Shown here in pieces: positions 20,439 through 58,214 of a stretch of DNA of 64,000 nucleotides; within the stretch, counting starts at the first letter, position 1, and each line of letters opens with the position of its first letter. The stretch covers positions 28,706,001 through 28,770,000 of the forward strand of contig NC_135365.1 in the NCBI RefSeq assembly GCF_051622035.1, read 5' to 3'. Under the pieces are notes generated by a model. The model ran no database searches, had not been told where the DNA came from, and saw nothing but the letters and a program-made list of their open reading frames with translations. Made by a program: the position numbers and the translations under genes. The DNA is from Arctopsyche grandis (taxonomy: Eukaryota; Arthropoda; Insecta; Trichoptera; Hydropsychidae).

Positions 20439-22806
20439 CCTTTCCCTTACGGTGCTAAAAAATTACGCGTGCAGCGGTGATGTCGACTCAGTCGTTCTAG
20501 AAATTCGTGATTTTAAAGTCTGATAAATATGAATATTTAACCATTTTTTCTTCTATTCATGACTATAGTTATAGTCCGCATCTATATAAATGAATATATA
20601 TGTATCAATATTGGTAATATACTGCTAAAAACGATCTAAAAAGCATGAAATTGAAGACGCGTGAACGACAATCCCAGAAGGCCGCCCATCTCCAAGTGAG
20701 GACGAACACTAGGCCCCCACTCCGCGACTCGCTGATCAGAAATCACGCCACATCCGCCAGAATTACGCGATGATTCAAAACCTATGCGTAAAAATATATT
20801 CAATTTTTTCATCAAATAAAATAAAATATGTTTATATGTACTTTTCATGTATTTATTTTCACAATAATAATTTTAATACACAAATACATAAATTGATAAA
20901 AAAAAAATGAGAAGTAAACGTAAATAAAAAAAATACAATATTGGGCATAGCTAATTCCAAACTAAGTTCTCTAATAAATAATTTTCGTCGACTTCTGTTA
21001 TTCGCCTTCCATTCTGGATATTTCTGCGCCCATAGCAAATATGCATTTAGCGCAGCTATATTCAGCATCTCCATAAACACTCTAAAAGGCCATCTTCTTG
21101 TTGATCTTGCACAAGAATACTCACTTGTCATTTTATCGCCGGTATCTACTGCACCTTTTGTTTTATTATAAAACATTATTATTTCCGGCTTCTTTTCTTC
21201 ATGACTACTCACTTCACTGTCATGAAATTGAGTAGACAATAGCAAAACTGCTTTATTTTTTTTTGGCACATACGAAACTAATGTCTTGGTTGATGTAAAA
21301 CCAAACAAGCTACTGTGTAAAAGTCTATGTTTCGATGGTAAAAATTCTTTGGGAATTTCCCGTTTATTTTTACGTAGGGTACTAGTTAGAGTTAGCCCTT
21401 TATCTAAAAGGCTATCAGCTAATGCCACCGAAGTAAAAAAGTTGTCCGTTGTTACACCTCTATTGGTGCCATATTGCGGTTGAACTAAATCCATCACTAC
21501 ACGATTCCCTTGATTTATCTCTCGGCAATTATTAACCATACCTGTATAAACCTGTATATTTAATATATATGCTGTTGAAGAGTCAGCCGATACCCACATT
21601 TTTATTCCATATCTACCGGGTTTCGTCTTCATATACACGTGGAATGGGCAATTGCCTTTATAGGTAGCCAAACGTTCATCCACAGTAATGTTGCAACTTG
21701 GAGAATAATTACGTTTACATTCTTCTACAAATTCATTAAAAATTGTCCTGATAGGTTCTAATTTATCAGACGACACGTGTATTCTTTCTTGTCTGGTTTC
21801 TTTGTCGTCAAAACGAATTTGACTGAATATTGTGATGAACCTATCCCGAGACATAGATGCCGTAAAAAATGGTTGGCAAAAAGCGCTGTCATTAGTCCAC
21901 AATTCATTTAAGCTTAATTTTCAGGTCCTATTTCTGCCAGACGCAAGCATTATTCCAATGAATGCAAGCAATTCTTCTGCCAATATCGGCTCGATAATTT
22001 TCGTGGATGTACGATGTAACTGACGATTCGTTTGTTCACATATTTCTCTCACCATATTTGAATTTATAAACAAAGAGAACATTTCTCTAATAGTATTTAC
22101 AGTAGTGCTACTATTTATAAGTCCTGAATTTTCGGTAACAATATTGCACTCTCTACGTCTTGAGGATGATGGTGGTAATGAATTCCATTGAAATCCATGA
22201 TTCGATGTATACACTTCTTCGTCTTCATTTTCACTGGCCTCTAATTCCGAATCTGTATCTTCCATGTCTTCAATAAAATCTTCCGTATCAGTAAAATTAT
22301 CATTTATTTCAAAATCGAGATCGCTATCATATTCCTCTTCATTCATCAAATTTCTTTCAGCCATTTTTTTTTTAAAATTAAAATTGTCTTTGAAAATATA
22401 AATATAATATACAATGTAGCATAGCAAATTAAAAAAAAATAACATTAAATAATTATTACCGTATTTACTATATAATAATCAAGAAACACAAATAAAGTGC
22501 TGGTCCACACGGTACAAAAAAGCTCCGAAACGAAAAAAACAACACGCGCGCACCGAGAACGGGACACGACTGAAGGAAAAAACGTAATAGCACACACTGC
22601 ATTTGCGCATTATGCCCGATTCTTCGATAAAATATTTTTTTCTGTTGCGTCAGATAAATACGTGTATATTATAATAATTCTATCTAATACATCAATGTAT
22701 TGCTGAGGAATACCCAAAATATGAACTCTGTATTTAGTATATTTACAGAGATATTCACACAATTAGAGTAAATGTCGACTATGTTTCTATCACCGGTAAG
22801 GAAAGG
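20439..22806 (-). mobile_element. piggyBac-like transposon, near complete
   Basis: 2368 bp flanked by TTAA (20435-20438 and 22807-22810) with inverted ends CCTTTCCCTTACGGTG and CACCGGTAAGGAAAGG. It contains a transposase gene on the minus strand that is open except for one in-frame stop. Confidence 0.88.
20859..22364 (-). pseudogene. piggyBac-type transposase with one in-frame stop
   Basis: DDE transposase of the piggyBac family (DDE_Tnp_1_7), which cuts and pastes at TTAA. I choose the start MAERNLMNEEEYD at 22364 because the upstream extension is only AT-rich; the acidic N-terminus is typical. The frame is open for about 147 codons, meets TGA at 21921-21923, then continues in the same frame to 20859. 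The three catalytic Asp lie in ITVDERL, VTTDNFFTS and GAVDTGDKM (about residues 229, 307, 407). The C-terminus runs into AT-rich sequence after RRKLFIRELSLELAMP, and no cysteine-rich PHD-like end is visible. With so little decay the element is probably fairly young. Confidence 0.88.
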
Positions 22807-24708: not shown

Positions 24709-27041
24709 ATGCAGGGGCGGCTGATTCCGGCTCGTTTTCTAACACTAATTGGACATCTGTGTATTGTGATTACGTTGCTATGGGAGAGCGAGCAGAGCAC
24801 GCGGCACTGTTTGCCAACGGAATTCCATCAGGAACATTTAAAATCATCCCAGAGGGAGTGAGTCCGATAAAACAACATTAAACTCATTCTTTACTAATTA
24901 CGCCGCTTATTACTACTGCTTTATATTGACATGACATCTGTTTAACGCGGGATATTGATTACAGGTTAGTGGGTGGTTATGGTGCTTCCATTGCCCTCAT
25001 CGGTCTTGAATTAATATTGTTTTTGAGTGGTATTACCATGTTTTCTTCGACTACCGCCCTTGTCTGTATCCTTATGCTAACTAGTTCATCAGCATTTAAG
25101 TGCATTGATGTGTTTTTATTATGTTTTGTACAAAGTTTGAACAAAAAATTCTTTGCATCCTTATTATGTATTACCTTAATCTGATCAGCAATTTATTTAC
25201 AAGTTTTAAGCTACCTTCCTTCAACCCGGATCCTCCTTTAGGCAGTTTTACATCTATTTTAGATCTAAAAAAGTGTGAATTATGCTTATATCATTAAAAG
25301 AAAAAGCAAAGACACGATCCAAGAAGAAATGAGAATATCTGGAGGAGGATCAGAGCTAAATATTAATAAAACTAGAGGAAGATAACTTTAAACTATGTAC
25401 TATATTAGTAGAAGCGGTTTGCAGACGGAGTTGAGATCTTGCAAAAATTTTAGAACCAAAGGAAGAAGATGATAAGCATCTAATATATTTCTTCTATTTA
25501 TTTTTTAATCTAATATATAATTTTGAAAGAGACTTTGTAAGGTTTAAAGTATGTAAGGTTTGGTTGGAAGAATCCGTGAAGTAATCGAAAAAATCTAATT
25601 TTCTATGACGACGATATCGATTCCGTTTCCAGATTACTTTTTCAGTTCCGGTTCTGGATTCTTTTATCGTTTCCGGATCCGGATGCCTTTTTCAATTCTG
25701 GATCTGGATGCCTTTTTCAATTCCAGATCACAATTAATGTTTCAATTCCGAATCCCGATTACTATTTCAGTTCCGGTTCCGGATTCTTTAATCGTTTCTG
25801 GATCCGGATGCCTTTTTCAATTCTGGATCTGGATACCTTTTTCAATTCCGAATTCGGATGCCTTTTTCAATTCCAGATCACAATTAATGTTTCAATTCCG
25901 AATCCCAATCACTGTTTCAATTCTGGATCCGGATTTTTTTTTTCATTTACGGATCCGTATGCCTTTTTCAGTTCTGGTTCCGGATTATTTTTTCATTTCT
26001 GGACCTCAATTCCTTTTTCATTTCCGGATACCGATTACTGTTTTAGTTCCGAACCCGAATTCCTTTAACAGTTCCAGATCTGGATTCCTATTTCAGTTCC
26101 GGATCGGGATTCCTGTTTCAGTTCCGGAATAAAAAACAAATTAATATTTACTATTAAATTAGCAACGTTTAAGTGGTTTTAATTAAAAATACCGTTCGAA
26201 GCCGGCTAATAAATTTGAAATTCAAATAATGGCAGCACATTATGACAGGTGGCCAATTTGCTAGGAACTATTTCAACAATGAAATCAGACAAATTGGCAA
26301 ACTTTGATTGGAAACGATCGATCTGGAGTCACATATCCAAGCCTAGGCCAGCAGCTCCGGGCAGGGATTGAACTCGTGATCCCTCCCAGTTATTGGAATT
26401 ATATGATAATCACTAAACTATCTACATTGATTGATTCTTAAATCTTGTCAGTATCTTTTTTTGATCAAAAGCTAAACTTTCACATAAGATTCAGATGCGG
26501 TTGAATGCTTGAAGTAACAAGAAAGTATCAAAACTGGAATATGTTGTTCAGAAGAAAGTGCTCTAATGATACCCAAGAGAATATAATAAAGCAAGACATT
26601 CTTCTGGGCTATCTAAACTATTCTGCCAACCTAACACAATTATAATTTGACTAAATTCTCTTGGGTATCACTTCTTCCGTAGTAGTAAGGATAAGGTTCA
26701 CTATATTGTTTTTATCTGACCTGGTATATTTGCATGTAACCTTGCTGGCTTTGCGTTCCGTGCTTCAAAACATGTCATATATATGTATATTACAGAAGAA
26801 CATTTATATCATCTTACATAGATAACCTTGCTTGTCCATGAATGCTACATATACTAATTAACATTATCCTTAACCTCGTAATTCAGCTACTGGATGCCAC
26901 GGATCGGCCGCTATAGTCTTAGCTTATTTCATATTGGAGTCGTGGCAGTGCGGATGGTTTTGGTTCATTTTTGTGTCTTGTTCTATTTTTCCGTTTCTAG
27001 TCGATGTTTTGACCGCCATATCTGTGTACGTACGGCAATAA
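24709..27041 (+). CDS. TMEM107: TMEM107, ciliary transition-zone membrane protein
   Basis: Small four-pass membrane protein; in animals it works with MKS-complex proteins at the ciliary transition zone, gating ciliary membrane content. Three coding exons: 24709-24857, 24965-25065, 26887-27041, total 405 nt, giving 134 aa (human about 140). It starts MQGRLIPARFLTLIGHL, aligning with the human PSRFLTLLAHL start. Conserved pieces follow: WESEQSTRHCLP before the luminal loop, LELILFLSGITMFSSTTAL, TGCHGSAAIVLAYFILESW, and a final hydrophobic helix ending SVYVRQ. Phases agree at both junctions. An overlapping frame at 24694-24881 is longer but does not join the next exon. A candidate poly(A) signal AATAAA (27040-27045) overlaps the stop codon. 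Intron 2 carries a Helitron and a SINE fragment. Confidence 0.9.
25509..26209 (+). mobile_element. Helitron, family 3, with expanded minisatellite
   Basis: 701 bp: begins TCTAATATATAATTTTG after A and ends GAAGCCGGCTAA followed by T, the Helitron TC...CTRR/A-T signature. The interior is dominated by the minisatellite at 25610-26130. A shorter relative is at 53915-54132. It lies in TMEM107 intron 2. Confidence 0.7.
25610..26130 (+). repeat. ~24-bp minisatellite (TTCCGGATCCGGAT-type)
   Basis: About 20 diverged tandem units mixing TTTTTCAATTCC with GGATCCGGAT or GGATCTGGAT. The resulting 175-codon open frame (25605-26132) is a by-product of a repeat length divisible by three; its Phe/Ser/Ile/Pro repeats are not a recognised protein. 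Confidence 0.85.
26236..26425 (-). mobile_element. tRNA-derived SINE, copy 3 (fragment)
   Basis: Minus-strand core of the SINE family (GGAAACGATCGATCTGGAG, then GGCCAGCAG and a degraded B-box complement). In TMEM107 intron 2, directly right of the Helitron. Confidence 0.6.
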
Positions 27042-36106: not shown

Positions 36107-37568
36107 TCATTTGGTTAATATAAAATCTCTCAAAGCTTTCAACTGATCCCAGAACACGAGCACGAGCACCGTGTGCGGCCCTAGTCTCAAATAAGACGGT
36201 CCGAGTCCTTTGTAGAAGCCGAGGAATCCTTCGGTCTTCGCCATCTTGACGAAACAATCCACGACTCCTTTGTACAAGAGACCACTGCCTTTTGCATCGA
36301 CTCCTATATATCGAATACAACGTGATTAATTTTAATACTATTCTTCGTAATAAAACTAATATATTATGTCATCGATTCTCAAATTAGTCAAATTTGACAT
36401 AATCTTAATTTATACACGCATACATATGAACGTATGCCTGCTTTATTGGTAAATGGAGTATTATTATATAACCAGTTTTTAGACAGTAATTTTTATACAA
36501 ATATGAAGTTTTGTAAAATAAAAATTTATTAATAATATACTGCAGTATTTTATTTATATACCTTGGTTATAGAGTCGAGTAGCAACCACATCGAACGGAG
36601 TCATGCACAGAGTCATCACAATGCCTCCGATGTTTGCCGCGACGAAGGAAGTCAACAACGGCGAATTCGAAAATATTTCCTTATTTTGAATGTACTCTTT
36701 GGAACTGGAGAATGTGGCTATCTGAGCTGCCGAACCGACGGCCCCTCTCGGCACTGACGCTATAACACCCCTATATAAACCTGCAACAATATACAGTCAT
36801 TCAAAATTATGTACACACACACACTATAAAATGCAGTCCCATGACAACTGCATACAAGACTATTTTGGCTTTTGGCTCATCTTTCATTACAAATTAATCA
36901 TCAACTACATACATATATACATAACTAGTGCTGTGCTTAGACACACATACGGAATAGCGATATTATATACATATATATGATATGATATAACAAACACCTT
37001 TGATTCCATCGCTCTTGTATATCTTCGTCAAGGCTTCACTCATTCCGGTGTGTTTGTGCTGGTATCCGACGGCTATTTCGGACGCAGCCTGAGCCTGGAG
37101 TTGCGTTTTGATCAGATAGAAAGGACTGCCCGAAGCAGCGCCTAAAACTCCACCCAAAGCTCCGAAAACGATGCTCGGTAGGACTTTAGTTTTGCCCTGA
37201 GAGTCTCGAACAAGACCCAAATCATCGGCCACTTGATATGTTCCCAGCCTGAAATGTGCACTAGATTAATATAACTGATTTTTTATATACATATGTGTGT
37301 GTGTGTGTGGATCAGTTGTTTTGTTTTACCGAAATCCGTTCAGGAAGAGTTGAAACCAAAGAGCTGGTATGAGTCCTTTTTGAAGTGCTGAAATGCCGTC
37401 CGATCGGGCTATTGTCCATATTCCATGCGGCACGTTCCGATAGTGAACGGCGTATCGCCCTCTGGCTTCCAGTTCTCCTTGAAGCTGCATCCTAGTCTTG
37501 ACCACTTCCAAAGGATTTGTAAATACACAAGCGCACATGGCGGCGACACCTCCGATGGCAAAATCCAT
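36107..37568 (-). CDS. SLC25A34/35-like mitochondrial carrier, paralogue 1
   Basis: Inner-membrane solute carrier of the SLC25A34/35 branch, whose substrates are poorly defined. Minus-strand exons: 37568-37330, 37248-36998, 36780-36562, 36303-36107; 906 nt, 301 aa. It starts [19 protein letters not shown]. Three carrier repeats are visible with signatures NPLEVVKTR (about 19-27), SPFYLIKTQ (about 121-129; lacks the usual acidic residue, as is normal in this branch) and TPFDVVATR (about 224-232). Family pieces TRMQLQGEL and [13 protein letters not shown] also occur. It is the first (rightmost in transcription order) of three tandem genes in one orientation. Its second intron interrupts K-G/LYRG, unlike the two paralogues. 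A Helitron relic lies 11 bp from the exon 2 donor. Confidence 0.92.
36925..36985 (-). mobile_element. 61-bp Helitron relic with both ends
   Basis: On the minus strand it starts TCATATCATATATATG and ends AGCACAGCACTAG, with A before and T after. It keeps only the two termini of the Helitron at 14892-16155 and lies in intron 2 of carrier 1, right beside the exon 2 donor. Confidence 0.6.
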
Positions 37569-39822: not shown

Positions 39823-42800
39823 TTAATTATTGGCGTTGTGCTTGGCGTTCAATTGCACATTCAGGTCTTTCAGAGCATCCCAGAAGACGAGCAGCAGCAC
39901 CGAGTGCGGCCCTTGTCTCAGATAAGACGGAGCGAATCCCTTATAGAACGCTAACAAGCCCTCCGTCTTGGAAATCTTCCAAGCACAATCGACCAGGCCG
40001 TTATAGTAAAGACCTCTTCCTTGCGCATCCACACCTAAAAGCAAACCCGGCATCAGCACAGATACACCTCGTAGAAAATGCAGCGGTAAAATATAAAAAA
40101 AGCAAGCGGAACCAACTATATAAAGCATTGGACGGAAGGTTACTTATTTACATTGGCAAACGTATATATTGTGGTTAAGTGCACCAGTAGTTGACAGCGC
40201 TTTATATACAGAGACGCCATTTTGAATTGTAAACTTCAACGCCATTTTGATTTTCTCGAACTACTGGTGCAAAAACTATACTGTTCGTGATTCTTGTTTG
40301 CTAGTGTAAACCTTACAAGCATTTTAAGCATTAGGATAGATAATTTGAAGCGGTAGAAATCAATATTACTCATGGACAGAAAAGGTTCTGAAAATTCAGC
40401 TGACGTTCAAATGTTAGTAGCAAGGTTTTTATTATACATAACTATTTGTTCGTTTAAATAGTTTAATAGAATCAGGATATTCTGAAAGCTAATCTAACAT
40501 TCAATTGTTACAATATGCATTCTAATTGAACTAAAAAGCATAATTTTGAATCATCAACTAATCTAGTCAACACGTATAACCATTATTACAATCACATTTG
40601 GTCAACGTGAACTATGACGCAGATCCACAAATGTGTCCAATTTAAGGCACGAAAACGACACAACGATCAACTGAAACACAAACAAAAACCAAACAATACA
40701 ATCGTTAGCTTAATTGGGCATCAACAAAGCGGAACAAAAAAAAAAAATAGTACACAAAACAAGCTGGGGAACAATTCTAATGCTAATTATTCTAATAACA
40801 GTCCACAATACGGTGCATGCATTGTATTTTATGCACTTTCATTTCGAGAAACATTTGCGAAACCTTGATTGTACAATCTTGTCACGATGACGTCCATCGG
40901 TGTCATGATGACGGCTTTAACGTAGCCGCCGAGCATGCTCGCCACGAACACCAATGTGTATGGCGAATCGGAGAAATATCCGTGCTCCCTCAACAACTCT
41001 TTAGATCTGTTGAAACATTACGTAGAACAATATAAATTACTGCAAATTCACCAAGTATTACATTTCCTATAATGATATTTTCACACTCGGAGGTTTGTCT
41101 TTGAAATTGGTTTAGTTTGAATTCGATTCGTCGCTCGTAGACTCATAACTAATATAATAGGAAGTAAATAAAAGATCTTAAAACGACTCAATATTACACA
41201 TTTGTTGGTCGATTGTAAATATTTTATTAACTGCAGTTTAGTGTTTTGTCGATATAAATAATTTTTTGTTTGGAAAAAGATTCTCCAGAATGCAATTCTG
41301 TCAAACTGTGAATAACTAACATGATAATATAAAGGGTTCCCGGAAAGATGCACTAAATTGCATTGAATAGTAGCGCAGTTTCGAGAAGTCCTCAAAAAGA
41401 ACTTGCGCAATAGAATTCCACAAAAAAAAAAAAGGTTAACACCCTCGGATAACATACAAATACCCCTTGACGCTTTTTTGTAGAATTCTATTGCGTTAGT
41501 TCTCGTTTAGTATTTTTGAAAGTTTGGATGTCTCGAGAGTGCAATTATCTCGAGTGCATTTTTCCGGTCACCAAAATAAAGTTCTATATGTTTGTAATAG
41601 AATGAAAGTATACATATATTCAATACTTAGATGAAGTCATGAGATAAATCAGACTTAAACTGTCAGCTGATGCATTTATATTTCGTATTTGTTTTTAACA
41701 TTAAGATATTTTTGTTGAGTTAAATCATTTTCTTCATTGTGAGTATTGTTTGTGAACTAATGCACAACTATTTATTTCGACAGCTGGGAAGGAAGTGATT
41801 GAAATCACTTAATAACTAGTTTTGAAAAAATTAATTGATCGAGTCTTTCATAGTTAATAGGTAAAAAAAAAAAGTACACTTATTGATTTAATTGTATGTA
41901 GTACATTGGTTTGGGATATAATTAAGTTTTAATTCATAATTTTGGCTTTCGATGCTCAGATCGGACCAACCTGCTGAATGTGACGATTTGGGATGACGAG
42001 CCGATGGAGTTTCTCAGCATGGTGCTGACGGATCCCCTCCACAGTCCCTTCAACCCCTGCTTATTGTATATTTGCTTGAGCGCTTTGAAAGTGCTGTTGT
42101 GACCGTGCTGGTAGCCGACGGCTATGCTTATGTGCGAGTAGGACATCAGTTGGGTTTTTATCAGCAGGAAAGGACTGCCGACTAAGGCACCGGCGGCTCC
42201 GGCCAAGGCACCGTAGAATATACTCTTCGACACGCTGGTGGCCCCCTTTTCATTCCTTATCAGCCCCCGATTGTCGGCCGTTTGATATATGCCCAATCTA
42301 TGAAAATAATGTTTGACTGGGTAAATTAAGCGACGGACCGTGTTATGTCGGAGTAATGTTCAAAGTCTGATCGGAATCAATGTTCAAAGTCGAGGCGGAT
42401 GGTGGTAACTTATTTTGGGCACAAATTACATACATATTACACTGTTCGACAAATGACAATTTTTTTTGGTTCAGAGATCTATGCACAGTGAAAACGAATC
42501 TGGTAATAAAAAATGTTGATTGGCTCGAGATTCGGAGATATGTGTTTTTTAAATCACGCGATTTTTCTATATCTTGGTGTTGTTCGGTCGATGTCTCAAA
42601 ATCTGTCAATTTTCTGTTCAAAGTGAATATTGGAATCTATAGTCGGGTATATTATCTTTTATTTGTAGTACTTTTCAGCTTTCAAATCTCTCTAAGTAGT
42701 CGTCCAGTTCAAATCAAAAGTCAAAAGTACGTATTTTAACTTGGGATTTTTTCCCACTGTTAATACTATTTTATATTTTGTATTTTCTATTGAAACATGT

Positions 42801-43463
42801 TTATTGGGATAGTGTTCTGGCCACAACATTTTTTGTTTTAATTTAAAAGGGTTAATTGGAAGTGTGCTGACTTTTAAATCGGTAAAATTGCGAGCTAAAA
42901 GCTCGTACTAGTATTTACTCGTATTTACACGAATCTGAATTGAATTAATAGGGATAATATATTAAATTGTCTTTATATGAGAATTAAATAAAATTCCACA
43001 TATAAAAATCATATTTCGACTATTCTTGTGGATTAATAAAAAAAATTCGTTTATTTTATCTATGTAGGTAAGCCAGTTATCAATAGAATTTTTGTTATTA
43101 ATCCACAAGAATAGTCGAAATATGATTTTTCTAAGTGTAATTTTATTCAACTCAGTCCGGAGAAAACATGCAAAAGCCCACCGCCGATCTGAACATTACC
43201 CGACGACGATCATGCGAAATGTACCTCGTTCCATTCACGACCAATTGGAACCACAAAGCGGGGACGATTCCTTTCTGGAGTGCGGTCAGTCCGTCGGCTT
43301 TAACGACGGCATACACGGCGTGCACCACGTTCTTGTAGTGAATGGCGTGCTGGCCGCGTGCCTTCAGCTCCCCTTGGAGCTGCATCCTCGTCTTAATCAC
43401 GTCGAAGGGATTGCTAAAGAAGCCAGCGCCGACTCCGGCCAGTCCTCCTATTAAATAGTCCAT
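39823..43463 (-). CDS. SLC25A34/35-like mitochondrial carrier, paralogue 2
   Basis: Same family as carrier 1. Minus-strand exons: 43463-43225, 42297-41971, 41006-40864, 40034-39823; 921 nt, 306 aa. It starts MDYLIGGLAGVGAGFFSNP. Carrier signatures are NPFDVIKTR, SPFLLIKTQ and TPMDVIVTR. The end is FWDALKDLNVQLNAKHNANN. Introns 1 and 3 fall exactly where they do in carrier 1; intron 2 lies 76 nt further on, after TFSR, as in carrier 3. Intron 1 contains a large foldback next to exon 1 and intron 2 contains a MITE. Substrate unknown; the family name is secure, the individual role is not. Confidence 0.92.
41340..41567. mobile_element. Foldback MITE in carrier 2 intron 2
   Basis: About 228 bp with inverted ends CCGGAAAGATGCACT and AGTGCATTTTTCCGG and an inner inverted pair (GCAATAGAATTC and GAATTCTATTGC) around a poly(A) centre. 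Nearly the whole element can fold. Family not assigned. Confidence 0.6.
42979..43155. repeat. Large inverted repeat next to carrier 2 exon 1
   Basis: Two arms of about 75 bp (42980-43055 and 43087-43157), almost identical in their inner 45 bp (e.g. TCATATTTCGACTATTCTTG and its complement), around a loop of about 32 bp. It lies in intron 1, about 70 bp from the donor site of exon 1, and would form a strong hairpin in the pre-mRNA. Confidence 0.8.
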
Positions 43464-44940
43464 TCTCTATGCGCACTATAGAGACGGGATCCAAAAACAA
43501 AGCAGTCAAACGTCACAATACTTCTACACAAATGTGATTCGGAACGCATCACAACGGACATTATTCAAAGACACGCAATACAATTCAAGACGAGCACTCG
43601 ACGATTAGAAAATGAAGGTCAAAATTAAAAATATTATATTACATATGCATTTTAATCGGTTAGCACATAGAAGATAGTTAGTTGTGTTATATATTATACA
43701 TATATACAGTAACTGTTAAAAATTTGTTAATATTTACATATTAAAATATGGACGAAAAACTTTCCGTTGACTTGTTGATGCCTGCATTTCGTCTGCATAT
43801 GAATAATTTGTAGAGAAATTAGAAAGTAGTACGAAATTTTTTGCAATTAATGTAAACATGTGTCTTTTAAGTTTTCTCCGCAACATTTGCAATTTAATGT
43901 AATTTTGCACAATGGCTTTTATGAGTATTTCTTTTTTCAGAATCTACCAAATACTACCATATTATAGACAGTTGCCTTGCCTACTGTGATTAAGTTTTAT
44001 TTTATTCATTTTTATGTATTTTTTGTATACTCACATAAGATAAATATATAATTATACAAATGAAAAAATAATAATTATATAAAATGACCATTCAAACATA
44101 AACAATTAATAAAGAGTAAACACATGCACTTAAGTAAATCAAATTAACAATAAAATGAAGGAAATATTAAGAGAAACATTTGTATGTAGATTAATAATTG
44201 AAGTTCCAACATATTGGATATTATGAGTATTTTAAAATTGCACAAAAAAGTTTAAAACATTATTCATGTGCGGTAAGTCTATTAGGCAAAAATATGTCCA
44301 AATAAAAGTATTCATAGAATAAGTTAAACATCGTATAAAACACCCATTAATTCAGTGAATTCGGATTACTCTGTATAATGTACACATATTAGGTTAGGTT
44401 AGGTTATAATTATAGGCAAAAATTCGTCCAAATAAAATAAGTATAATTGTAAGTTTACATAGAATACGTTAAATATCGAAAAAAACACCCATCAATTCAG
44501 TGAATTCGAAGTACTGTGTATAATGTAAATATATTATGCTAGGTGCATAGTGCAAAACTACGAATGAACTGTGTGAATCTGCGTGGGAATGAATTAAAAT
44601 GATACAGAATATTTTCTTGAAATTTCTAAAAATATATACAACGAATGGGTCGAAGCAGCAAACGTCAAATCGACACGCCAATTACGACGAATATTCATTT
44701 GAAAACAAACATATTACAAACCCACTTAAAAATTGTGAAGAATACATTACGATTTGTACGCGAATAGAAAAGGCACGAGAGCCGATCGAAGGGGTTAGGG
44801 CACCTTTGTGTCTTGGCGATCAGATCACGCGTCATCCGAGTGACGTTTATAGTTCGTCATGTCGAGAGAATGCAGAAGACGCGCGAATGCGACGGCTGTC
44901 AGATGGCGAACGAGGGAACGAGGAAACGAACGCGCGTGAC
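43464..44940. other. Upstream region of carrier 2
   Basis: AT-rich sequence without a supportable gene. Two tandem, diverged copies of a unit of about 110-130 bp lie at 44282-44387 and 44412-44545, separated by three TTAGG units (44389-44406). Confidence 0.5.
44389..44406 (+). repeat. Short interstitial TTAGG run
   Basis: Three TTAGG units plus TTA, the insect telomere motif, between two tandem copies of a longer repeat unit. Confidence 0.7.
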
Positions 44941-45324: not shown

Positions 45325-47231
45325 AGGTCTGTTCATACTTAACAGCACTGCACGGCTTCAGCACTGCACGACTCCGTTTCAAATATGTCATTTTATTACA
45401 TTTCTATTCATATCTACCTACACGTCGCGGTCACGTCACGTTTACAGCAATTTGGCCGAGTGCAAGGCAAAATCGGCTTACTTATACATTAGAGGCCATG
45501 ACGATACGGCGCAATATTGCTTACGTCGTATTGTCGAGTACTTGCAATATGAATGCATACACGTGCATTCGTAGCTACGCGTCAGAATACAAGTTATAGG
45601 GGATGAACGAATGAGACGACTGGCATGTTAATGCACGTGTTTATTATATGACAGCTGAAGACGGAGTGGGTAGCAGCTCTCCGAACCCAGCCGGGTTGGT
45701 CCCCACTCGCAGGAAGGCAACCAAACTCGACCATGTCGTATAAGCGAGCCGCCACATCACTCCCCCCCCAGCATCAGCGATACCAAAATTACAAAGAAAC
45801 AAATTTTACAAAAGAAAAAAATTATTGTTACACAAAGAGAAAAAATTATTACGTGGGGAGAAAAAAAATTGTTGACGTGGGTCATCCGCTGTGTACATAG
45901 GTGTACCGCCCTGAATGGTCGGTAGATTCGAGGGCGGTGACGTCGCGAGCAGGACGGTGGGTGGTCCGATGGTCGCGCCGATCAATGCGATGCTGCGGCG
46001 GCGCCGCTCTTCCGAGGCTGATGTCGGTTGGTGGGGCGGCGGGGGCGGCAGGGGCATCGATGTGGTTGATGATACTCCGAGCTGGACTGTGAGTCGTTGT
46101 GGCTCGTGGAGGTGTTGTAGCGCTACCGCCCGTCTCGGCGTGACGACGCTCGTGGGGACGGACGGGGCCTTGATGATGATGATGATGATGATGGTGCTGA
46201 GGTGGTGTATGTCTTGTGGTGCTGGATGACCGTTCTATGTGTAGTGGATCGCGCATGACTCCACATCCAGCTGTCAAGATCGTCGTCTCATTCGCTCCCC
46301 CATTTTTTAAAAACACCTGTCGTCGACGTTGTGGCTGGACTCCAGTCGATAGGTAGATAGGTAGGTAGCCGTGTCTGCTCGTTTATTGTCACCCGCGGGC
46401 CGCGACGCGTGTTGATGGCGATGGGGGCGCGGCGGGTAGCTTCCCCGCCTGGCTCGGCGAGGCAGGGATGAGCGGCATGTTGAAATTGATCGAGGCTGCG
46501 TGGCTCGATGTCGGGGGTCACCAGTATAGGGGATGAACGAATGAGACGACTGGCATGTTAATGCACGTGTTTATTATATGACAGCTGAAGACGGAGTGGG
46601 TAGCAGCTCTCCGAACCCAGCCGGGTTGGTCCCCACTCGCAGGAAGGCAACCAAACTCGACCATGTCGTATAAGCGAGCCGCCACAAAGTCAACAAAAAT
46701 GTTTCGACGTTTATCGAACGAAAAATTATGTATAATCGCGCTGTTGTTAGAAGAAGAAGCTCAAGAAGGCAATCAAAAAGCACGGAGGCGTTTTGATGTG
46801 CATCCCATGTTAAAAAATAAAAAAAAACCGAAGGAGAGTTTTGGACACTGTATAAGGAGCTTGTGGATGATGGACAAAATTTTTTTAAATATTTCCGTAA
46901 AAAATTTAAATATTTGCGCCAAAACCATGTCGAAAGATTGAACAGCTGTCAACTGTCATTATCGATAATTGGTCCAAAACAGCAAAGCGGCAGAGTCATG
47001 GCACGTAATTCGCGTGTATATTTCCACGATGGCCAAAAAAACGGATACGATACGTTGACGGATGTTGCTGTACGGTATGAACAGGAAATGTCGGGTACTG
47101 CTGTAAGCCTGCCGTGGCGTAAACGTGACGGTTGGTATGAATATACCCATACAAAATGTACCAAAGAATACTTTTCGTACGGCCGGATACCTGCTGAAGT
47201 CGGTACGTGCTGACTAGGTATGAACAGACCT
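45325..47231 (+). mobile_element. Harbinger-like element, copy 2, split by a TRIM
   Basis: Ends AGGTCTGTTCATAC and GTATGAACAGACCT, flanked by TTAA (45321-45324, 47232-47235). Outside the inserted LTR element (45595-46686) it follows copy 1 at 14023-14840 almost base for base and keeps the same transposase N-terminal remnant (about 46690-46920). Non-autonomous. Confidence 0.72.
45595..46686 (-). mobile_element. TRIM-type LTR retrotransposon, family B, whole in structure
   Basis: 1092-bp fossil with two 162-bp LTRs (45595-45756 and 46525-46686) that read as identical, and a 4-bp duplication AAGT (45591-45594, 46687-46690). Minus orientation: a primer-binding-like TGGTGACCCCCGACATC lies one base inside the right LTR and a G-rich polypurine-like tract adjoins the left LTR. 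The 768-bp interior holds a His/Pro/Arg-rich open region and no reverse transcriptase, so it depends on a partner element. The identical LTRs suggest a recent insertion. Solo LTR of the same family at 7967-8127. Confidence 0.85.
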
Positions 47232-50140: not shown

Positions 50141-53100
50141 TTAAGACTCCAACTTGTGCCTTCCGAACAAATTTTTAAAATGATCCCAAAATATGAGACA
50201 GAGTACAGTATGAGGCGCAATTCTTAGATAGAATGGTCCTACGCCTTTATAAACTCCTCTGATCCCTTCAGCTCTTAATATTTTTAAACCGCAATCTATC
50301 ACCCCAGTGTAAAAGCTTCCTTTACCAGTCGAGTCCACCCCTAAAACAACAACAAACATATTTTATTGATCAGTATTGAATCGTTGGCAGCTTTGGGTCA
50401 AGGTTAACCAGGCCGAATTGGACTCACCTTGATTGTAAAGACGAGTAGATATAACATCGAAAGGGCACATAAATATGACAAGCGCTATACCACTTATGTT
50501 ACTAGCAACGAAAGCTGTCATGATTGGACTATCGATCAATATACCATTACTTTTTAAAATATCCTTAGATCTGTAAAAATAAAAACAAAAATCATTTCCA
50601 AAACCTCAAAAGAGATGCTTGAGATAATAGCGTAAATGTCTTTTCTGTGGAATGAGGGTGAGCCTTTACAAATGAAATGACTTCTATGAGTTGGTAGAAA
50701 GTAGAGGTATATCATTTACCTGGTAAAAGTTGTAAGTTGTACAGCACTACCCACTCCTGCTCTAGGAACGGAACTCTCTACACCTCTCCACAATCCCTTC
50801 AAACCATCTTTTCGAAATATAACTCTGAAAGCGTCCAAGCTGCCGCTGTATTTGTATTGATGTCCTACTGCTATAGTCTCGTGTGAACTGGATTGCATAT
50901 GAGTTTTTATCAAATAAAATGGACTAGCTATGAAAGCGCCGACTATTCCAGCAGCAGATCCATAGAAGCAACTTTTCAAAGTGTCCGTCTGTCCCTGTTT
51001 ATTTTTCGTCAACGACTGAGATTCTGCCGTTTGATATAATCCCAATCTATGTAGATAAATTAAAAGGGTGCACGTTTTATTTTAAAATAATCAAATTTTT
51101 TTACAAGGCTCTTTTTTATATTTCACTTCGCAAGCAATTCAGCTGAAATTCTTAGATTTGAAACTTTGCCATTTTGAGCGTTTTAGTCAACGCTATAATT
51201 GTAATATGAAAAATAATTGTAATAGACACGTTTAAAAATATGTATGTTCGGCGTTTCGCCACCCTCTCGTTTTGTCAGATTTTAAGTGTTTAAACGGTTC
51301 GGTGATTACTGGTCACAAACGACTCGTCACAAAGTCACTAAAATCTCTATAACGGAACACCTGGCATCCGAAAAGTCCATCATACTAACGATAACGATCA
51401 TACTAACGAGAACTCGAGTGCCAAATATTGTGTATTCGCGATTTTCATGGCAAAAATTGTCTATGTGACCACCTAAATGTGACGAATAATCCAATTACCG
51501 TTTAAACGCCTATGGCTTTATTTTTTTCGCACTATCTATATATATATATATCATCATCATCATCATTTACAGCCATTCGCCATCCACTGCTGGATGAAGG
51601 CCTCTCCAACACGCTTCCACTCGTCTCTGTTTTGCGCAACACTCATCCATCTCATTCCGCACATTTTCCTAATTTCGTTCACCCATCTTCCTTGCGGTCT
51701 TCCTTTTACTCTTTTGCCTTCTCTCGGGTACCATTCAAGCACTTCTTTTGTCCACCTTTCGTCCATCCTCCTAGCTACGTGACCCGCCCATTGCCATTTC
51801 AATCTCTTCACTCTATCCACTATGTCCACTACCCTTGTCATATTTCTCACCCACGTGTTCCGCTTCCTGTCTTTCCTCGTTATGCCAAGCATACAGCGTT
51901 CCATACTTCTTTGAGTGCATTGGATTTTATTTTGCATCTTGGCGTTCAGTGTCCAAGTTTCACATCCATACGTCATCACTGGCAAAACGCATTGATCAAA
52001 GATCCTTTTCTTCAGGCAGAGTGGCATTTTTGATTTAAAAACAGCATTCATCCGTCCAAATGCACTCCACCCCAATTTCATACGTCTCTTTATCTCTTCA
52101 TTTTTACTACCAGACATGTCAATTATTTGACCTAAATATAAATAATTATTTACTACTTCTACTGGTTTATCATCTAAGGGGATGCTATCAGGCATGCAAT
52201 AACTATTGAACATTAGTTTAGTCTTATCTACGTTAATTTTTAATCCTACTTTTCTACTTTCCCTGTCCAGCTGTGTTAGTCTGATAAGTAGGTCAGCTGA
52301 ATCACGAGCTACTAAAACTATATCGTCTGCGAACCGAAGGTGACTCAAAAAGCGACCATTGATGCTTACTCCGGCTGTATCCCAATCCAATTTCCTGAAA
52401 ACTCCCTCAAGCACCGCATTGAATAACTTGGGCGAGATTGTATCTCCTTGTCTTACTCCTTTTCCTATGCTAAATCTATCTGTACCTGAAAAAATTTTAA
52501 CTGAAGCTGTGGCATTCTTATATATTGTAGCTAACAGTCCCACATAGGGTTCCGGCACTCCCTGTGTTTTTAGAGCGTTAAGTACTGCATTATGACTAAC
52601 TGTATCGAAGGCTTTCTCATAATCGACGAAACCTAGGCACAGTGGCCGTTGATATTCGTTGGCGCGCTCGATTAGTTCGCCAACTACTTGGAGGTGGTCC
52701 ATTGTGCTGAAATTTGCCCTAAACCCTGCCTGCTCTATAGGTTGGTTCTCGTCGAGGATATTCTTCAGCCTTTCTGTAATAACCTTCGTGAAGAGCTTGT
52801 AGACCGCTGAAAGTAGACTAATGGGTCGGTAGTTCTTGATATCGCTTTTGTCGCCTTTTTTGTGTATTAAAATGATAGTTGCGTTATTCCATCCTTCTGG
52901 TATAGCTTGGTTCTGGATGCATTTGCTGAAAAGCCTAGCTAAGATATTAATTAGGGGGGGGCCGCCACATTTTAGTAAGTCGATGGGAATATTATCTTCC
53001 CCTGGGGTTTTACCATTCTTTGCAGTTTTTAGCGCGGCCTCTACTTCGCTAGGCAATACTGCAGGAACCCTTTGGCCGTGTGTCGATTCCAGAGTGGGGA

Positions 53101-54927
53101 ATTGGCCGTTGTCGTTCTCGTATAGTTTTGCATAGAACGTGTAAACTCTGTCTATGATTTCTTCTCTATTCCTAATTATTACTCCGCTCTCTGATCTGAT
53201 TGCGATCATTTGGTTTTTGCCTAAGAAAAGATCCTGTTTGCACTTTTTCAGGCTACGGTTATTCTTAATGGTATTTTCATATATATATATATATATATAG
53301 GAATGATTTTTAAACGAGCTGTATGTGTGGTTGGCCAACCTGCTAGGGATAAAGTGTGTGTGGTATGGATGGTTGAGACCGGATGCGTGTGGTTATGGTT
53401 ACTTTTTGGAGAACAAGCCAGACGATACGATGTGTAATAAATATACTTGACCGAATCTGCGCTTTTCACTTGGAATCCTTCACATACGGAACCTAAATAT
53501 ATATAAAAATGAATGTCTGTGTGTGTGTCTCGAATAGGCTCCTAAACCACTGAACCGATTACGATGGAACTTTAAAGATTTGTTGTATGCATGACCGGGA
53601 AGATTACTGTGAAAAAAAAACGGGAAAAACGGGAACGGAAACGTGAAAAACGAGTCTCATTGCAACGCTATATGTACTTTCAAATGTTTTCGCGTTACCA
53701 CCAAGGTGTTCGCTGCTTGCGTTTTACCGACAAATGGGAACGGGAACGAGAACGGGAACGGGAACGGGAACGGAAACGAGAACGGAAACGAGAACGGGAA
53801 CGGTAATTGCATGCGTTTTTGTGACATTGCAGCGCGTGCCGGGTTCAGCTAGTATCTTATAAAATTTGTATTATAGGCTCTCATTATCTTTCATATATAT
53901 TTTTACTTCACTAATCTAATATATAATTTCGAAAGAGACTTTGTATGTATGTTTGTTTGTTTGGTTTGTAGAGTCCGTGACTTTTAATTTAATAAAAAAG
54001 AAATGAATATTCAAATAAATTTAAATAAAATAAAACTATTCAAATAAATTTAATAAAATGTTTACTATTAGATTGGCCATGTTTAAGCGGTTTATATTAC
54101 AAATACCGAGTGAAGCCGGGTAAAAACACTACTATGTATGTAGGTTATAAAATGAATGTTAAAATTTTTATATTATAATGGTGATAATTAATACATGATA
54201 GTGATTGATGGAGATGCATTTCAATTTACCTAAGCACGTTTCCATACAGTTTGTTTTAATTTTATTAAAAGCAGGGGATATACGGAATGTAAATAAAAAG
54301 TTAAAATTTTCTTTGAAAAGTAAAACAAATGTTTATATTTGGGGTGAAATATTTTAAAATGCAAATCAATTAAAAAACACATTGGATTAAATTTTGGATG
54401 TAAGAAAACCTAGCAAATTATATATTTGTTAAATCAAGCTATTATTAATCAACTACTTATTATTTGAAAGTCAATTAAAAACCACTTTAAACTGTTCGTG
54501 ATTGAATTTCAACCATATTTTAACATAAATCGAAAATGCGCGGTCAAGTTCTGGGTCAAACTCCATGACCTATTTCCTCACAAAGAACGTCAATATATCA
54601 TAAATTACATTAACTACAAAACTATTACGAGTGGTCGCAATTTGGGTTTCATTACCAGCAAATTTTGAACTTTATAAAATCAAAATACCTGGTACTGTTG
54701 CAGAACAATTGAAACCCTAAAGCAGGAACCAACCCCTTCTGCAAAGCCAACAATCCATCGTTTTTAGCAATTGTGAACAGCGCGTGAGGCACATTCTTAT
54801 AATGCACCGAATAGTGACCCCTGGCTTGGAGTTCTCCTTGAAGCTGCATCCTGGTCTTGACCACATCCAGAGGATTGCTGAAGAGTCCGGCGCACATGGC
54901 GGCCGAGCCGCCCAGCACGAAATCCAT
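50141..54927 (-). CDS. SLC25A34/35-like mitochondrial carrier, paralogue 3
   Basis: Third tandem family member. Minus-strand exons: 54927-54689, 51046-50720, 50570-50428, 50340-50141; 909 nt, 302 aa. It starts [20 protein letters not shown] take this Met, not the one 51 codons upstream, because it matches both paralogues. Carrier signatures are [18 protein letters not shown] and CPFDVISTR; the third repeat has Cys where the others have Thr. The exon plan (239/327/143 nt before the last exon) is identical to carrier 2. Intron 1 (3.6 kb) holds an RTE LINE in the same orientation, a MITE and Helitron pieces. Substrate unknown. Confidence 0.92.
51288..51507. mobile_element. MITE with GTTTAAACGGT ends
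   Basis: 220 bp with inverted ends GTTTAAACGGT and ACCGTTTAAAC. A degraded relative is upstream of HIRA at about 8520-8715. Family unassigned; in carrier 3 intron 1. Confidence 0.65.
51541..53300 (-). mobile_element. RTE-clade LINE, 5'-truncated
   Basis: Minus-strand non-LTR element whose ORF is open from about 53280 to the TGA at 51563-51565. Reverse transcriptase blocks are clear: [63 protein letters not shown] and the catalytic FADDIVLVA. The C-terminus (RMERCMLG-type block, [16 protein letters not shown], final QQWMANG) is the RTE signature. The endonuclease and start are missing: the 5' end stops at a TA microsatellite near 53279-53300. The 3' tail is a short TGA repeat that begins at the stop codon. 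Inside carrier 3 intron 1. Confidence 0.88.
53495..53852 (+). mobile_element. Helitron, family 1, with GGGAAC hexamer repeat
   Basis: Insect Helitron-like start (ATATATAAAAATGAATGTCTG, then GGCTCCTAAACCACTGAACC) and 3' end GCCGGGTTCAGCTAG followed by T. A run of GGGAAC/GAACGG hexamers occupies 53735-53803. The 5' terminus is approximate. Confidence 0.6.
53915..54132 (+). mobile_element. Helitron, family 3, short copy
   Basis: Starts TCTAATATATAATTTCG after A and ends near GAAGCCGGGTAAAAACACTA. Same family as 25509-26209 but without the minisatellite. Confidence 0.55.
54133..54688. other. Carrier 3 intron 1, AT-rich remainder
   Basis: AT-rich intronic sequence with no recognised gene or repeat. 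Confidence 0.4.
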
Positions 54928-55334
54928 ATCAGTCGTTTCAGTCCATTTGGAACTACGCCATTTCGATTCGCACGACGACCCAAAGTCACACCGTTTGGTA
55001 CATGACTGATATCTGGCGAACCAACTATCTGAACTACGTAACGTCACAGAACGTAACGACGACGAGGTCGCGTGCTCCACTAGCTGAACAACACTGACGA
55101 TTTTGTGTTATCAGGTGTCATTAAATTACTACGGAGCTGTTATCTGGTGATGGAATTTGACGAGTGATGTATTAAATTAATTTATGTGATCTTTTTGAAG
55201 AAACTTACATATGCCTAAATTGTGGTCAAATAAGTTAAGACGAAGATAGGTACAAAATAAACTAAGATGTTCTGGGTCAATTTTCTTTTAGTTTGAATTT
55301 TATTTTAAACATATGTACATACGTAGTGTACATA

Positions 55335-56304: not shown

Positions 56305-56590
56305 GGGTGAAATCACACAGGGAAGAACGGCACGTCGTGTGCTTGGATCCCCACTGTGGGGGTTCTCCTACATTTCTTCAAATATGGGATACACTCTTAT
56401 TGATCACTGTCAAGCAAGGATAAATTCAAGGATAAAATTTTACCGAAAACACTCCAGGGGGTGATTTTGAGACGGTGTGTACTAGGCATGCCGTGAATAT
56501 GTTCAAGACATGTCACATTTTTTTCTAATGTTTAAAAGTATTTAAAAAAAAGCCGTGATTTCGTTCCTTCCTGTGTGTGAAGCCGAGTAT
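56305..56590. mobile_element. Harbinger-type MITE, family G1, diverged copy 3
   Basis: Left end AAGGGTGAAATCACACAG, right end CTTCCTGTGTGTGAAGCC. The interior matches copy 1 inverted (ACTCCAGGGGGTGATTTTGAG; CATTTCTTCAAATATGGGAT without overlap). No clear duplication. Confidence 0.5.
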
Positions 56591-57403: not shown

Positions 57404-57466
57404 TTATAAAATACACACATACATACATATATGGCACATAAATTACTTATTATATTTATCAATACA

Positions 57467-58082
57467 TTAAAAATTATATTTCAGTCCTGCTCCAAAGAAA
57501 GGCTTTCCAGAATTCCCATTCATGAAAGTTTGGGAATATTGACCAACTGCATCCAAATTGCTATTTTTGTTCGGTCTCCAAATCGTAGCACCACCTTGGG
57601 CTCCAACCTAAAAATTTCAATACTAAAATATAGAAAAGACTTGAGCTCAGCCAAGAAAAACTTTGTGGTTTTAAAATATTCACCTGAACTCCACTGGGAA
57701 TTTTGTCAACAGCCAGAGATCCACTTGATCCTCTTCCTTGGTAATTTAACAAACTTCCAGCAGTATATACAGGCTTTTCTTGATGAGCCAATGTTTGAGT
57801 GGCATGAAGTTGTGCACTGAGTCGATTGTGATCATTTTGGAATAGATTACTCCTGACTCCGAATCTGTTCTAGAAATATAAAAATAAGCAAGTCAAAAAA
57901 GAGTATAATTATCAGATCAATTCAGAATTTTTCCAGGAAATTACGTGTAAATTTGGGGAGTCGAATGTTGAAGAACCAAATAAGCTCGAACTGGGTCCAA
58001 GAGGTACATTGAATAAGTTTCCTCCTTGGGCTGCTACACAATAAACTGTGCTTAGTAAAAGTACTGATACTGCGCTCTTCAT
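57467..58082 (-). CDS. Attacin-like secreted antimicrobial protein
   Basis: Small secreted protein resembling the C-terminal domain of attacins, glycine-rich insect proteins that act on Gram-negative bacteria. Minus-strand exons: 58082-57945, 57869-57684, 57607-57467 (138+186+141 nt, all phase 0), 154 aa. A hydrophobic signal peptide MKSAVSVLLLSTVYCVAA is followed by mature QGGNLFNVPLG. Blocks match the attacin C domain in order: SNLFQNDHNRLSAQLHATQ (attacins: ANLFNNGRHNLDAKVFASQ), GRGSSGSLAVDKIPSGVQ, and the final ATIWRPNKNSNLDAVGQ with GKPFFGAGLKYNF (attacins: PNFGAGLGLSHHF). No RxRR pro-peptide site is evident. It is shorter than fly and moth attacins (about 190-220 residues). A TATA box and a kB palindrome upstream suggest Imd/Toll control. 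Assignment rests on recalled family sequences. Confidence 0.82.
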
Positions 58083-58157
58083 GTTTGATTTTTGCTAATT
58101 AGTTTTCACTGGTTTGAATGTGTGATAGATAATGAGTTCTCAGTTGTTGGTTAGTAG

Positions 58158-58165
58158 TATTTATA
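58158..58165 (-). promoter_or_regulatory. TATA box of attacin-like gene
   Basis: TATAAATA on the minus strand, 76 bp upstream of the start codon, giving a 5' UTR of about 45-50 bases. Confidence 0.7.
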
Positions 58166-58204
58166 CTCGAACGTAACAGGAAAATATTTACATATAATTC
58201 TAAA

Positions 58205-58214
58205 GGGGTTCCCC
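58205..58214. promoter_or_regulatory. Palindromic NF-kB (Relish/Dif) site
   Basis: GGGGTTCCCC, a perfect palindrome fitting the insect kB consensus GGGRNNYYCC, about 40 bp upstream of the TATA box of the attacin-like gene. GATA-type motifs (AGATAA/GATA near 58120-58132) lie between it and the start codon. The combination is typical of fat-body immune promoters. Confidence 0.7.

What the first reader, a model, noticed from the sequence alone, without database searches (positions are those of the whole stretch)
57467..58214. Attacin-like immune gene with a perfect palindromic NF-kB site and TATA box
Seen: three phase-0 exons giving 154 aa with a signal peptide, blocks matching the attacin C domain, TATAAATA 76 bp before the ATG, and GGGGTTCCCC about 40 bp further up. 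Known: insect antimicrobial genes are induced through kB sites close to TATA boxes. Inference: an immune-inducible single-domain attacin lacking the usual pro-region.
Basis: partly seen in the sequence, partly recalled or inferred. Interest (0 to 1): 0.75.

Follow-up and report, generated by a model that had tools for sequence, protein, structure and literature searches.

The report
Ordinary insect attacin antibacterial gene
This is a small, intact-looking insect gene for a secreted antibacterial protein of the well-known attacin family, with a promoter that looks switchable by infection; it is a new member of a known kind, not a new kind of thing.

Summary
On the minus strand three phase-0 GT-AG exons (58082-57945, 57869-57684, 57607-57467) encode 154 aa matching Pfam Attacin_C at 43.6 bits, E 4.1e-11, cut-off 28.8; the reversed protein matches nothing at E up to 1. 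TATAAATA (58165-58158) and GGGGAACCCC (58214-58205) lie 39 bp apart. A kB-type 10-mer turns up in 0.3-0.8% of simulated 200-bp stretches. Its centre is not palindromic.

No RXXR or dibasic site and no Pfam match for exon 1: the moth-type pro and N regions are absent. But signal peptide plus Attacin_C alone is described in cockroaches, proposed as ancestral, and close to a soldier-fly attacin with a 130-aa mature protein. Exons 2 and 3 correspond to attacin's G1 and G2. The species was not identified; no insect relative could be fetched. An ordinary attacin gene.

The parts
58205..58214 (-). kB-type site GGGGAACCCC (GGGGTTCCCC on +), putative Rel/NF-kB binding site, -81 to -72 of the proposed start
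   Evidence: sequence and motif scan; function inferred
58158..58165 (-). TATA box TATAAATA
   Evidence: sequence; a TATAWAWR box alone has 6-11% chance in 130 bp
58131..58135 (-). initiator-like TCATT, A at 58133, 32 bp below the TATA start; proposed transcription start
   Evidence: TATA plus spaced initiator in 0.09-0.15% of simulated 130-bp stretches; pattern recalled and chosen after seeing the sequence
58083..58133 (-). proposed 5' untranslated region (51 nt)
   Evidence: inferred
57945..58082 (-). exon 1 (46 aa): signal peptide (about residues 1-18, 58082-58029) and a 28-aa linker without a furin-type site
   Evidence: signal peptide by eye; no Pfam match at E up to 1
57870..57944 (-). 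intron 1, 75 nt, phase 0, GT...AG, 24% GC
57684..57869 (-). exon 2 (62 aa): first half of Attacin_C (profile 12-65), corresponds to G1
   Evidence: G1 naming from PMC7924397
57608..57683 (-). intron 2, 76 nt, phase 0, GT...AG, 26% GC
57467..57607 (-). exon 3 (46 aa plus stop TAA): second half of Attacin_C (profile 72-116), corresponds to G2
   Evidence: G2 naming from PMC7924397
57398..57403 (-). AATAAA polyadenylation signal, starting 63 nt after the stop

Best explanation
An intact-looking insect gene for a short attacin: a secreted, basic, cysteine-free antibacterial protein of the Attacin_C family made as signal peptide, 28-aa linker, G1 (exon 2) and G2 (exon 3), without the moth-type pro-peptide and N domain. 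Shown: the gene structure, the domain match, the presence of the promoter motifs. Inferred: infection activates a Rel/Relish-type factor, which binds the kB site about 80 bp above the start and drives a TATA promoter; the pre-protein loses its signal peptide (near Ala18/Gln19) and is secreted; [quoted passage not shown]
For: Attacin_C 43.6 bits, E 4.1e-11, cut-off 28.8, residues 52-152. Exon 2 and exon 3 alone match the profile colinearly (12-65 and 72-116; E 2.7e-4 and 3.5e-4, each below the cut-off on its own). Reversed protein: no match; opposite-strand ORF 57410-57820: no match. Exons 40-41% GC against 24-27% for introns and 500-bp flanks. Predicted mature protein 136 aa, 14.5 kDa, pI 9.9, no cysteine, 13% glycine. 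Exons 2 and 3 encoding G1 and G2 is the described attacin layout (PMC7924397). kB, TATA, initiator-like site, AATAAA. Outer-membrane damage by a comparable attacin (PMC10690985 passages) and activation of two Manduca attacin promoters by Rel-type factors in cell culture (PMC4742911 passages).
Against: No transcript, protein or induction data. Signal peptide not tested with a predictor. No homologue could be fetched, so no conservation test: no relative confirmed in viral contigs or genome contigs, neither of which is a collection of insect genomes. The exon 2/exon 3 internal repeat is only marginal here (158 of 5000 shuffles score as high with BLOSUM62, 97 of 5000 with BLOSUM45). AlphaFold of the exons alone gave low-confidence helices, not the expected beta structure (mean pLDDT 59.6 and 60.1), uninformative without an alignment. 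In Manduca, Dorsal and Rel2 together abolished activation of the attacin promoters tested in Sf9 cells, so a kB site does not by itself predict induction.
Confidence: 0.93

Rival explanations
1. It is a real attacin gene, but the kB site is a chance motif and the gene is constitutive or tissue-specific rather than infection-induced.
For: GGGRNNYYCC occurs at six further places in this window; no expression data exist here. Manduca work shows that kB sequence, direction and a neighbouring GATA site matter, and that of five predicted kB sites in the moricin promoter only the proximal one responded (PMC4742911 passages).
Against: The site is proximal, and a match within 200 bp turned up in only 0.3-0.8% of simulated stretches; GATA-type motifs also lie upstream at 58269-58264, 58334-58329 and 58386-58381, though their chance rate was not computed and such short motifs are common in AT-rich DNA.
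Confidence: 0.15
2. It is a gloverin rather than an attacin.
For: A weak Gloverin match, 17.1 bits, E 0.0057.
Against: Below the Gloverin cut-off of 25 while Attacin_C is well above its own; without exon 1 the gloverin score falls to 14.3 bits while Attacin_C rises to 46.2.
Confidence: 0.02
3. A recently dead or isolated attacin pseudogene copy.
For: It is a lone copy here: no second copy in the window by tblastn, and transposon sequence lies within a few kb (reverse-transcriptase ORF at 51563-53392).
Against: Open frame throughout, consensus splice ends, start, stop, AATAAA and promoter motifs all present.
Confidence: 0.04

Closest known systems
Blattella germanica attacin-like proteins (PMC7712779, passages)
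   Same: signal peptide followed by Attacin_C alone, no Attacin_N
   Different: 118-119 aa against 154 aa here; three attacin-like genes there (plus four Glx-rich blattellicins), one copy in this window; sequence identity not measured
Hermetia illucens attacin Hill_BB_C10074 (PMC10690985, passages)
   Same: 20-aa signal peptide and 130-aa, 14.8 kDa cysteine-free mature protein with no pro-peptide mentioned in the passages; here about 18 and 136 aa, 14.5 kDa
   Different: sequence identity not measured; that protein has assay data, this one none
Classical attacins, first described in Hyalophora cecropia (as reviewed in PMC7924397, section 5 part 1 of 2)
   Same: exons 2 and 3 of attacin genes encode G1 and G2; no cysteine; glycine-rich
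   Different: those are pre-pro-proteins with P domain, RXXR furin site, N domain and a mature part of about 190 aa; here no RXXR and no N domain
Gloverin (PF10793)
   Same: weak profile similarity
   Different: below the curated cut-off

Membership tests
Attacin family in the broad sense (Attacin_C, PF03769) | Attacin_C match above the curated cut-off | tested here: met
   43.6 bits against 28.8, E 4.1e-11
Attacin family in the broad sense (Attacin_C, PF03769) | secretory signal peptide | tested here: inconclusive
   hydrophobic N-terminus with a plausible AA|Q cleavage seen by eye; no predictor run
Attacin family in the broad sense (Attacin_C, PF03769) | cysteine-free, glycine-rich mature protein | tested here: met
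   0 Cys, 18 Gly of 136 (13.2%) after residue 18
Attacin family in the broad sense (Attacin_C, PF03769) | G1 and G2 on exons 2 and 3, similar to each other | tested here: inconclusive
   exon-to-profile order met; mutual similarity marginal, 158 of 5000 (BLOSUM62) and 97 of 5000 (BLOSUM45) shuffles score as high
Attacin family in the broad sense (Attacin_C, PF03769) | immune induction and antibacterial activity | not testable with these tools
   needs RNA-seq and recombinant protein
Classical moth-type attacin (P-N-G1-G2) | pro-peptide ending in an RXXR furin site | tested here: not met
   no RXXR and no dibasic pair in the 154 aa
Classical moth-type attacin (P-N-G1-G2) | Attacin_N domain (PF03768) | tested here: not met
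   not listed at E up to 1 for the whole protein or exon 1
Gloverin (PF10793) | Gloverin match above the curated cut-off | tested here: not met
   17.1 bits against 25

The most novel reading that the evidence does not exclude
The protein ends in GAGLKYNF (residues 147-154). From memory, this resembles the C-terminal beta-signal of bacterial outer-membrane proteins (a glycine, then an aromatic residue, then a final Phe, at matching spacing). If short attacins mimic that signal, they could jam the BAM machinery that assembles outer-membrane proteins, which would fit the reported block of outer-membrane protein synthesis by attacin (cited in PMC4874388). The consensus is recalled, the match was noticed afterwards, and neither its chance rate nor its conservation in other attacins was tested. 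Related prior ideas exist: a soldier-fly attacin model resembled outer-membrane beta-barrels and was proposed to form porin-like trimers (PMC10690985 passages). The one search pairing attacin with BamA listed 8 papers; I read passages of one of them, and no title or abstract start in the list stated this idea for attacin, though one describes designed peptides aimed at BamA.
Probability: 0.04. Interest if true: 0.7.

Novelty: new member of a known kind. Interest (0 to 1): 0.17.

Why it matters
Modest. It adds one clean gene model of the short attacin form, exon by exon, with its promoter motifs. It fits the published view that Attacin_C alone is the common core, and it corrects the expectation that an attacin should carry a pro-region. 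If the species proves to belong to an order where attacins are poorly documented, the gene would help to place gains and losses of the family.

Tried and rejected
Own-genome search for PF03769: error, no genome is held for this window. Search for relatives in viral contigs and genome contigs: 9 and 33 stretches matched a peptide pattern, none was a relative by tblastn at E up to 1e-3. PDB sequences: no match at E up to 1. tRNA scan (bacterial settings) and Rfam scan of the window: nothing. Second attacin copy in the window: none; the best tblastn hit outside the gene has E 0.96. AlphaFold on exon 2 alone and exon 3 alone: mean pLDDT 59.6 and 60.1, single-sequence helices, treated as uninformative, so no fold search was run.

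Species: not identified. Window CpG observed/expected is 1.14, which from general knowledge would fit Hymenoptera among others; I rejected it as proof. A search for attacin with hymenoptaecin and sawfly gave 0 papers. A sawfly AMP annotation (PMC10542623, passages) reports hymenoptaecin, abaecin, tachystatin and hisnavicin types, found from hymenopteran sequences; the listing counts 'attacin' 0 times in it.

Other literature calls: 11, 19, 21 and 26 were used as listings to choose papers; (attacin G1/G2 exons) listed 7 papers, all with 0 occurrences of attacin; a look into PMC10090678 for domain terms found no passage.

Internal duplication of exon 2 and exon 3 was considered as independent support and left as weak.

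Full report
What is there. The minus strand of 57467-58082 holds three exons with GT-AG introns of 75 and 76 nt, all in phase 0, giving 154 aa. Exons are 40-41% GC in a region where introns and 500-bp flanks are 24-27% GC. The start, the stop TAA and an AATAAA beginning 63 nt after the stop are all present.

What it encodes. The spliced protein matches Pfam Attacin_C over residues 52-152 at 43.6 bits, E 4.1e-11, against a curated cut-off of 28.8. Exon 2 alone matches profile positions 12-65 and exon 3 alone 72-116 (E 2.7e-4 and 3.5e-4; each by itself is below the cut-off), so both lie in the order the family requires. Exons 2 and 3 without exon 1 score 46.2 bits, and the reversed protein has no match at E up to 1. 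Gloverin is matched weakly, 17.1 bits against a cut-off of 25. No PDB chain matches at E up to 1.

The promoter. TATAAATA is at 58165-58158. An initiator-like TCATT puts the proposed start at 58133, 32 bp below the TATA start. GGGGAACCCC lies at 58214-58205, with 39 bp between it and the TATA box. It is not a perfect palindrome in the strict sense, because the central TT/AA breaks the symmetry. The exact 10-mer occurs once in 64 kb and was found in 1 of 100 shuffles. A GGGRNNYYCC match on either strand turned up in 0.8% (window model) or 0.3% (local model) of 200-bp stretches, from 20,000 simulations each, and TATA plus a spaced initiator in 0.09-0.15% of 130-bp stretches; the span and the initiator pattern were chosen after seeing the sequence. 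TATA alone is unremarkable here (6-11%). GGGRNNYYCC matches lie at six further places in the window, so the motif alone proves nothing.

How unusual is the missing pro-region? The 154 aa hold no RXXR and no dibasic pair, and exon 1 matches no Pfam family at E up to 1, so the moth-type P and N regions are absent. But this is a known form. Blattella attacin-like proteins are described as a signal peptide plus Attacin_C, and that paper repeats the view that Attacin_N is an artefact (PMC7712779, passages). A 2016 review proposes that an Attacin_C-like peptide stood at the base of Neoptera and that attacins with N and C domains arose separately in Brachycera and Lepidoptera (PMC4874388, passages). 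A soldier-fly attacin has a 20-aa signal peptide and a 130-aa mature protein of 14.8 kDa (PMC10690985, passages); the predicted mature protein here is 136 aa and 14.5 kDa.

One refinement. [quoted passage not shown] The same split is seen here by profile position. The mutual similarity of the two exons is only marginal in this gene: 158 of 5000 shuffles score as high with BLOSUM62 and 97 of 5000 with BLOSUM45. 'Single-domain attacin' is therefore true for Pfam but is better written as signal-linker-G1-G2.

How it most likely works. Inferred throughout: bacterial sensing activates a Rel-type factor that binds the kB site and drives the TATA promoter. In Manduca, Rel2 and Dorsal domains each activated attacin promoters in cell culture, but the two together abolished activation in Sf9 cells (PMC4742911, passages). 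The protein is secreted after signal-peptide removal and acts on the Gram-negative envelope; a soldier-fly attacin disrupts outer membranes in vitro, and its trimeric beta-barrel is a prediction only (PMC10690985 and PMC12940664, passages). Folding the single exons here gave low-confidence models that neither support nor refute this.

Limits. The two collections searched for relatives hold viral and prokaryote contigs, so their silence says nothing about insects. The neighbourhood fits an animal nuclear genome: WD40 ORFs resembling HIRA (the CAF1B/HIR1 and Hira matches are both just under their cut-offs), one mitochondrial carrier ORF, a sugar-transporter ORF, a reverse transcriptase and a DDE_Tnp_1_7 transposase of piggyBac type, a name that I recall. 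That the animal is an insect is inferred from the attacin itself.

Verdict. Real, correctly located, correctly identified, and ordinary: a new member of a known family in a known architectural form.

Noticed in passing
20859-22478 (-): A transposase (DDE_Tnp_1_7, E 3.1e-69, on the 20859-21920 part; piggyBac type by recall) and the ORF just before it lie in one frame split by a single in-frame TGA, so this copy looks recently dead. The upstream part was not searched.
   Followed up: partly
36963-37265, 39823-40143, 41934-42359, 43152-43466, 50716-51081, 54652-55107 (-): Six ORFs look by eye like mitochondrial carrier exons, perhaps a tandem array of related carrier genes; only 41934-42359 was tested and matched Mito_carr, E 7.8e-17.
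   Followed up: partly
10464-16724 (+): WD40 ORFs and a Hira-domain ORF, probably a HIRA-like gene; the CAF1B/HIR1 propeller match (72.8 bits against 80.5) and the Hira match (24.1 against 25) are both under their cut-offs on these unspliced pieces.
   Followed up: partly
13970-14823 and 46582-47213 (+): Two stretches share near-identical translated blocks, seen by eye in the ORF list, and look like copies of one repeated element.
   Followed up: no
25620-26128: A 25-bp tandem repeat of about 20 copies (71% matches) over which two frames stay open for 162 and 177 codons.
   Followed up: no
56359-56368 (+): A second kB-type 10-mer, GGGGTTCTCC, about 1 kb beyond the 3' end of the attacin gene; no gene was assigned to it.
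   Followed up: no
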